Below are positions 40,887 through 41,081 of a stretch of 64,000 bases of DNA, piece by piece. A program made the translations under genes and the position numbers. Where the stretch lies: the NCBI GenBank assembly GCA_030710605.1, contig CP092877.1, positions 45,740,406 through 45,804,405 on the forward strand, in the 5' to 3' direction. The first letter of the stretch is position 1, and each line of letters starts with the position of its first letter. The stretch comes from Cordylochernes scorpioides (lineage: Eukaryota; Arthropoda; Arachnida; Pseudoscorpiones; Chernetidae). Under the pieces are notes generated by a model that did not search any database, was not told the origin of the DNA, and worked only from the letters and a program-made list of their open reading frames with translations.

Positions 40887-41081
40887 TACATTTTGCTGCA
40901 AGAGGTACTGGGCCATCTGGATCTGCTGGGGCGTGCCAGAGATGGTGATGACCCGTTCGTTGCTACCAGGTTGAGACTCATCTATGGTGATCCCCGCACC
41001 AGACTCGCGCCGGATCTTCCTGATGCGTTGACCACCTTTCCCAATGATGGCATCGGCGAGATCATTTGGTATAGTGACTTG
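40887..41081 (-). CDS. KH domain like hnRNP K KH3 (bancal), inside an LTR element
   Basis: A single uninterrupted frame (minus strand) gives a complete type I KH fold: QVTIPNDLADAIIGKGG, QRIRKIRRESGAGITID, then NERVITISGTPQQIQM and AQYLLQQNV. The RNA-binding GxxG loop is intact as GKGG (41031-41042), with the preceding hydrophobic II and the downstream ITISGT strand. The sequence is recalled as closest to the third KH domain of hnRNP K, Drosophila bancal, which binds C-rich single-stranded RNA. It follows directly on the RT entry motif WCHPMVVVPKKGSS and is followed directly by the integrase tail, with no intron and no poly(A) run. So it replaces the RT-to-integrase core rather than being inserted as a retropseudogene. 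Whether it is translated as Gag-Pro-KH is unknown: the frames upstream are shifted twice. Confidence 0.85.

What the first reader, a model, noticed from the sequence alone, without database searches (positions are those of the whole stretch)
40887..41081. LTR retrotransposon that has swapped its RT-to-integrase core for an hnRNP K-like KH domain
Seen: within a well-bounded LTR element (LTRs, tRNA-Ser primer site, purine tract, TTTTG duplication) the minus-strand frame goes from the RT entry motif (HPMVVVPKKGSS) straight into a complete KH domain with intact GKGG loop, and then straight into the integrase tail (KRYNRN, VLVQD, RRFLRP). Known: the sequence recalls KH3 of hnRNP K/bancal, a nuclear poly(C)-RNA-binding protein. 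Inference: a host mRNA segment was captured by template switching. There is no intron and no A-tract, and both joins fall inside coding blocks. The KH frame is free of stops while flanking gag and pol are frameshifted, which hints that the domain mattered to the element, or that the capture was recent.
Basis: partly seen in the sequence, partly recalled or inferred. Interest (0 to 1): 0.93.

Follow-up and report, generated by a model that had tools for sequence, protein, structure and literature searches.

The report
Jumping element carrying a stolen hnRNP-K domain
A young, numerous jumping element in a pseudoscorpion genome has swapped most of its copying enzymes for an RNA-binding domain copied, with its introns already removed, from the animal's own hnRNP K gene; the gene of origin, both break points and the probable copying route can all be read in one genome.

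Summary
The window copy (40229-43291, minus strand) is a Ty3/Gypsy-type LTR element whose frame runs from the RT entry motif into hnRNP K KH3 and on into the integrase tail. It is one of at least 150 loci with the full KH (419 first-look candidates). 31 of 41 copies read carry one open frame of about 690-980 aa (Gag, CCHC, protease-like part, KH, integrase tail). 29 of 31 measurable copies have an exact 5-bp target duplication; LTR pairs differ by 0.29%. An RT-bearing parent family with frames to 1499 aa exists. I found the host's hnRNP K KH3 exons on contig 9: spliced, they match the element over 216 nt with no difference in 30 of 42 copies and one in 10 (2 not located); both introns (57 and 288 bp, GT-AG) are missing. 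The left join lies in a 9-nt stretch shared by host and parent; the right has AAG homology plus a TTCC duplication. That points to template switching onto spliced hnRNP K mRNA, very recently. Gag trees mix KH copies with parents, implying recombination. Whether KH does anything is open: capture is too recent for its clean frame to show selection. The window copy itself is frameshifted and its KH has lost a near-invariant glycine.

The parts
40229..43291 (-). whole non-autonomous LTR element (KH form B, 3063 bp)
   Evidence: LTR repeat; LTR ends, length and 5-bp duplication
40224..40228 (.). target-site duplication TTTTG, left
   Evidence: sequence
43292..43296 (.). target-site duplication TTTTG, right
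   Evidence: sequence
42982..43291 (-). 5' LTR in element sense (310 bp)
40229..40539 (-). 3' LTR in element sense (311 bp)
42962..42981 (-). primer binding site position, TGGCGCAGTCGACATTCGGT next to the 5' LTR
   Evidence: tRNA identity not tested
40540..40551 (-). purine tract before the 3' LTR
   Evidence: read from the sequence
41159..42925 (-). gag, CCHC knuckle and protease-like part, broken by frameshifts in this copy (open pieces 42515-42925, 41907-42608, 41156-42130)
   Evidence: the CCHC match is below the Pfam cut-off; one open frame in other copies
41091..41162 (-). in-frame remnant of the RT entry region, ...HPMVVVPKK, joined to KH
41082..41090 (-). left join: 9-nt microhomology GGCTCATCA shared by host hnRNP K exon and RT-bearing parent
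40878..41081 (-). KH domain (hnRNP K KH3), 68 codons; Gly10 to Asp in this copy
40860..40877 (-). right join: host TCC, a TTCC duplication, host GGAAG, then parent CGATAC (AAG shared)
40535..40860 (-). integrase C-terminal tail, shifted out of the KH frame in this copy by one extra base

Best explanation
A Gag-coding, non-autonomous Ty3/Gypsy-type element of the pseudoscorpion Cordylochernes scorpioides. Steps: (1) spliced host hnRNP K mRNA was packed with genomic RNA of the RT-bearing parent family; (2) during minus-strand synthesis the polymerase left the integrase-tail region of the element RNA for the end of the hnRNP K reading frame (AAG homology, with a TTCC stutter), copied the KH3 exons, and returned to the element RNA inside the RT region through the 9-nt stretch GGCTCATCA; (3) this replaced RT core, RNase H and integrase core with KH3 in frame, giving a Gag-protease-KH-integrase-tail protein; (4) the product was amplified by enzymes of the parent in trans and went on recombining with parents; (5) a second in-frame deletion (306 nt) made the shorter form A. 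Shown: source gene, spliced origin, joins, many copies, youth, mixing with parents in gag. Inferred: direction of switching, mRNA rather than a processed DNA copy as template, trans supply of enzymes. For KH itself I judge 'mostly a passenger so far, tolerated because the fusion stays in frame' more likely than a selected function.
For: Host KH3 exons in G000:C9:99231490-99232689 (L089), spliced, equal the element over 216 nt in 30 of 42 copies; 10 differ by one base, 2 were missed by the text anchor; introns of 57 and 288 bp with GT-AG ends absent. Host and parent share exactly GGCTCATCA at the left join; a run of 9 or more is expected at about 3e-5, and 9 of 200000 random joins reached it. 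Parent: 11 of 12 loci fetched by the RT-entry query continue into RT, frames to 1499 aa. The 40 KH copies located share both joins, bar single-base changes; 29 of 31 have exact 5-bp duplications, LTR mismatches 28 of 9781. Gag tree rejects one KH clade, AU p 0.0106. Closest KH outside this genome among 145 rows compared: scorpion hnRNP K, 58 of 68 residues.
Against: No expression or particle data. 40 of the copies were chosen by KH protein score, which favours unchanged KH; five KH copies picked otherwise (from the RT-entry list, but only rows absent from the KH list, which tilts the other way) held 4 changes in 1020 nt. I did not search for a processed hnRNP K pseudogene, which could have served as DNA donor. 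The tree has only 6 of 38 inner branches well supported and its bootstrap had not settled; labels taken together cluster more than shuffled ones (12 changes against a mean of 16.1), so mixing is partial.
Confidence: 0.88

Rival explanations
1. KH is a working part: the Gag-KH fusion binds C-rich RNA or hnRNP complexes and helps the element (packaging, nuclear transit, or interference with hnRNP K).
For: Left join, right join (only thanks to the 4-nt TTCC stutter) and the form-A deletion all keep the frame, about 1 in 27 if frame did not matter (a count made after seeing them); out of frame the right side of L035 would stop after 16 or 31 codons instead of 147. KH fold predicted well. Gag in 32 KH copies with long frames pN/pS 0.49 against 0.83 for the RT remnant. 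hnRNP K takes part in silencing of endogenous retroviruses in mouse stem cells (PMC4303303, search listing with start of abstract only).
Against: Element KH equals host KH, so there is no record of selection; five copies not picked by KH score gave 2 replacement and 2 silent changes. No excess of C-rich motifs in the window element's sense strand. In-frame retention may serve only the Gag frame or the integrase tail.
Confidence: 0.27
2. The donor was a processed hnRNP K pseudogene in the genome, joined by DNA repair or gene conversion, not mRNA in a particle.
For: Would equally explain missing introns and microhomology.
Against: No such copy was seen in the KH searches, but these were capped lists filled by element copies and no specific search was made; two joins inside one element with retained LTRs fit copy-choice better.
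Confidence: 0.1
3. Assembly error or chance chimera in one copy.
For: None beyond the window copy being broken.
Against: Same joins at many loci on many contigs with separate target duplications; public protein P0098 carries the same KH fusion. No reads were available.
Confidence: 0.01
4. KH is an inherited domain of a KH-bearing retroelement lineage.
For: None.
Against: None of the 120 listed RT relatives (of 461 found) shows a KH domain in its Pfam column; identity to the host gene is complete in 30 of 42 copies.
Confidence: 0.01

Closest known systems
Bs1 LTR retroelement of maize (captured H+-ATPase and other gene segments); PMC13317346, passages read
   Same: LTR element with host-gene segments inside it
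   Different: Plant, three donor genes; here one RNA-binding domain in an animal Gypsy-type element, with donor identical and many copies with open frames
Crocodilian ERVs with captured KIT-ligand and nectin3 mRNA; PMC4299795, passages read
   Same: Host mRNA captured by a retroelement, nectin3 at the expense of env
   Different: Vertebrate ERVs, capture older (one nectin3 protein about 76% to that of Alligator sinensis); here KH replaces the Pol core in frame with Gag and is unchanged
TR-GAG non-autonomous elements (search listing; definition recalled)
   Same: Gag kept, Pol core lost, presumed mobilised in trans
   Different: The listed papers that use the term are on plants; no host domain fused as far as I recall
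Retroviral transduction of cellular genes (recalled)
   Same: Copy-choice onto packaged cellular RNA, loss of viral genes, helper needed
   Different: Endogenous Ty3/Gypsy-type element, no infectious stage shown, RNA-binding domain
hnRNP K KH3 (PDB 1zzi and others)
   Same: Same domain; the host's own KH3 is identical
   Different: Here fused to Gag and Pol remnants without KH1, KH2 or the glycine-rich region

Membership tests
Ty3/Gypsy-type LTR element | Paired LTRs with TG...CA ends and 5-bp target duplication | tested here: met
   29 of 31 measurable copies of 41
Ty3/Gypsy-type LTR element | RT, RNase H and integrase in the RT-bearing relative | tested here: met
   RVT_1 and RNase H in P0131, rve in P0113, proteins named as from C. 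scorpioides; RT before integrase in loci
Ty3/Gypsy-type LTR element | RT, RNase H and integrase core in the KH element itself | tested here: not met
   absent: a non-autonomous derivative
Retroelement with transduced host gene | Segment identical or close to a host gene elsewhere in the genome | tested here: met
   216 of 216 nt in 30 of 42 copies
Retroelement with transduced host gene | Introns of the host gene absent | tested here: met
   57-bp and 288-bp introns
Retroelement with transduced host gene | Transposed after capture | tested here: met
   many loci, same joins, separate target duplications
TR-GAG-like non-autonomous element | Open Gag frame without Pol core | tested here: met
   31 of 41 copies with frames of 690 aa or more
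TR-GAG-like non-autonomous element | Moved by a partner's enzymes | not testable with these tools
   inferred from near-identical gag and recombination
hnRNP K KH3 | Type I KH fold with GXXG loop, nearest to hnRNP K | tested here: met
hnRNP K KH3 | Binds C-rich nucleic acid | not testable with these tools
   no assay; no C-rich excess in the window element

The most novel reading that the evidence does not exclude
The element has armed its Gag with a copy of a host silencing and RNA-handling factor: KH3, identical to the host's, lets Gag-KH enter hnRNP K complexes, either to gain nuclear and RNA access or to act as a decoy against hnRNP K-dependent silencing, and this drove the burst of KH copies.
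Probability: 0.13. Interest if true: 0.92.

Novelty: new variant of a known kind. Interest (0 to 1): 0.76.

Why it matters
Capture of host mRNA by retroelements is usually seen long after the event. Here donor gene, spliced exons, both joins, parent family and many young products sit in one genome with almost no changes, so the copy-choice route can be read directly. It is also a natural case of an RNA-binding domain fused to Gag, and lets one ask whether such a domain gives an element an advantage. I saw no earlier report of a KH domain in an LTR element in the listings of the paper searches, nor of this element in the species searches (open-licence papers only; listings, not full texts).

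Tried and rejected
Host gene: a KH1-KH2 query from bed bug hnRNP K found the KH2 exons on C9. KH3 searches listed only element copies as far as I can tell (150 of 416 and 150 of 359 candidates scored; no row near the C9 gene) and the scorpion linker query gave one hit at E 4.74, taken as chance; KH3 was then read directly. The host exon was probably missed because KH3 is split over three exons and so scores below whole copies.

Selection on KH: one search gives pN/pS 0.05 for KH, but those copies were picked by KH protein score, so I discard it. (six loci from the RT-entry list that were absent from the KH list; one a parent) is too small and tilts towards changed KH. In one search the ten parents gave gag 0.21, RT entry 0.20, but CCHC-protease 0.90 on 19 changes, which I cannot explain. 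C-rich motif test negative. RT box VED looked like decay but is shared by close relatives. Rfam at gathering thresholds found nothing in the window. In one search, 10 of 41 copies were dropped because the text anchors for LTR ends were not found; L013 was dropped for gaps, 2 of 42 copies were missed by the anchor. Total copy number was not obtained: the junction count did not complete.

Full report
What is there. The window is part of contig C15 of a 2.62-Gb, 24-contig genome. A public protein named 'HNRNPK [Cordylochernes scorpioides]' (P0098) lies on a contig of 129427685 bp, the length of C4 here, so I take the species to be this pseudoscorpion (inference from that match; taxonomy). The element spans 40229-43291 on the minus strand, with LTRs of 310 and 311 bp and a TTTTG duplication, inserted in what looks like a Penelope-type RT region (my reading of motifs). 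Its frame 40770-41258 runs from the RT entry motif into KH and then into the integrase tail.

KH identity. Pfam KH_1 E 7.9e-21; human hnRNP K KH3 E 4.5e-24; model pLDDT 90.9 with a type I KH order of elements. Of 335 proteins in hand, 145 had an ungapped KH stretch with at least 38 of 68 residues alike; apart from P0098 of this species, the nearest are two scorpion sequences, 58 of 68. The window copy has Asp at a position that is Gly in at least 90% of 20 aligned sequences; of 42 copies the window has Asp, L021 Ser, the other 40 Gly.

Not a lone copy. A genome search with the KH gave 419 candidates, of which 150 were scored; all 150 were full length, without stops. I read the surroundings of 40 of the other listed loci plus the window copy. 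31 of 41 have one open frame of about 690-980 aa: Gag, CCHC, a protease-like part, KH, integrase tail. Two forms: B keeps about 100 residues of the RT entry; A lacks 306 nt more, in frame (my count from the residue numbers; forms seen). By flanks, 12 of the 41 are A and 29 B (my tally); the sample was picked by hand for a spread of frame lengths, so this is not a frequency. Both LTR ends could be placed in 31 of 41; 29 of 31 have exact 5-bp duplications, 13 have no mismatch between LTRs, total 28 mismatches in 9781. With a recalled arthropod rate near 3e-9 per site and year that is around half a million years, rough.

Parent. A query with the RT entry piece gave 11229 candidates; of the 150 scored, frames reach 1499 aa. 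Of 12 loci cut out, 11 continue into RT (HPMVVVPKKGSS then EPRVTVDL) and one is a KH copy. In the two parent integrase pieces read the tail is ...QKALKRYNRN, where KH copies have ...VREHSFRKRYNRN. Two C. scorpioides proteins of the family carry RVT_1 and RNase H (P0131) and rve (P0113).

Donor. KH2 exons of host hnRNP K were found at C9:99229920. A 1200-bp piece downstream (L089) holds the KH3 exons. Spliced, the host exons equal the element from GGCTCATCA to CATTCC over 216 nt: no difference in 30 of 42 copies, one difference in 10, 2 missed by the anchor. The two introns, 57 and 288 bp, begin GT and end AG and fall inside KH and just before VREH. So the element holds a spliced copy. The sample favours copies with unchanged KH. 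Six more loci were fetched from the RT-entry list, taking only rows absent from the KH list, which tilts towards changed KH; one was a parent, and the five KH copies differ from the host letters of the 204-nt KH by 1, 2, 0, 0 and 1 bases, 2 replacement and 2 silent.

Joins. Left: host CAGGGCTCATCACAAG, parent AAAGGCTCATCAGAAC, element AAAGGCTCATCACAAG: 9 shared letters, expected at about 3e-5 for a random join, 9 of 200000 simulated joins, and the frame is the same on both sides. Right: host CATTCCGGAAGGAAG-TTT-stop, parent CTCAAGCGATAC, element CATTCC-TTCC-GGAAGCGATAC: AAG homology (3 or more by chance in about 5%) and a 4-nt stutter that puts the integrase tail in frame; in L035 the other frames would stop after 16 or 31 codons rather than 147. 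The 40 KH copies located share these joins, bar single-base changes, so one capture is enough.

Life cycle. On 1425 columns of gag from 41 rows (32 KH, 9 parents), the parent label needs 7 changes (shuffled mean 8.4), and holding the KH copies as one clade is rejected (AU p 0.0106); form A likewise (p 0.0026). Limits: 6 of 38 inner branches are well supported, the bootstrap had not settled, and the three labels together cluster more than shuffles (12 changes against 16.1). With identical KH joins this means recombination between KH copies and parents, as expected if their RNAs share particles; it is my best evidence for trans supply of RT and integrase. Gag pN/pS in KH copies with long frames is 0.49, CCHC-protease 0.51, the RT remnant 0.83 (5 silent, 14 replacement), integrase tail 0.39 on 11 changes; parents give gag 0.21, RT entry 0.20 (5 changes) and CCHC-protease 0.90 (19 changes). 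So Gag looks constrained and the RT remnant less so, but numbers are small and only copies with long frames were used.

Does KH matter? Unknown. The clean frame is explained by youth. For a role: all three rearrangements keep frame (about 1 in 27 by chance, counted after the fact). Against: no excess of C-rich motifs in the window element, and no selection signal that I could measure without bias.

Literature seen. Bs1 and abnormal template switching: PMC13317346, passages. Crocodilian ERV captures: PMC4299795, passages. Bdelloid LTR elements with extra ORFs: PMC5408684, passages, 'KH domain' 0 occurrences. hnRNP K in ERV silencing: PMC4303303, search listing only. No KH-bearing LTR element showed in the listings.

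Noticed in passing
L010-L020; P0131, P0217 onward: RT active-site box of the parent family reads VED, not VDD (11 of 11 loci); shared by relatives at about 56-72% identity (copepod, sponge, unnamed metagenome proteins), while those at about 55% and below that I looked at have VDD: a lineage trait.
   Followed up: yes
L035 residues 407-415; parents L015, P0113: Protease motif reads ADPGS where relatives have PDTGA or PDSGA: altered catalytic triplet in a young, numerous family.
   Followed up: partly
P0098, C. scorpioides public annotation: A 661-aa model named HNRNPK is a patchwork of mobile-element pieces with the element's KH, not the host gene.
   Followed up: partly
window 32554-37432: 351-bp satellite arrays, 4.4 and 9.6 copies, in opposite orientation, beside inverted copies of a Penelope-like element; one related unit at 45138-45194.
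   Followed up: no
window 97-6798, 23375-28069, 49582-53486, 56608-61603: Dense nest of Copia, Gypsy and LINE-like pieces, judged by eye from frames.
   Followed up: no
G000 C13:83509770/83542932, C6:5781741/5838771, C18:45707022/45752499, C2:88517476/88596799, C6:13201872/13306085: Matches to the KH1-KH2 query come in near-equal pairs about 33-104 kb apart, as if recently duplicated or as unmerged haplotypes.
   Followed up: no
C2:157352849 and C2:157355605; C8:68338373, 68341100, 68343827: Probable KH-element copies stand in tandem about 2.7 kb apart, the period of one internal region plus LTR, hinting at LTR-LTR exchange arrays (letters not read).
   Followed up: no
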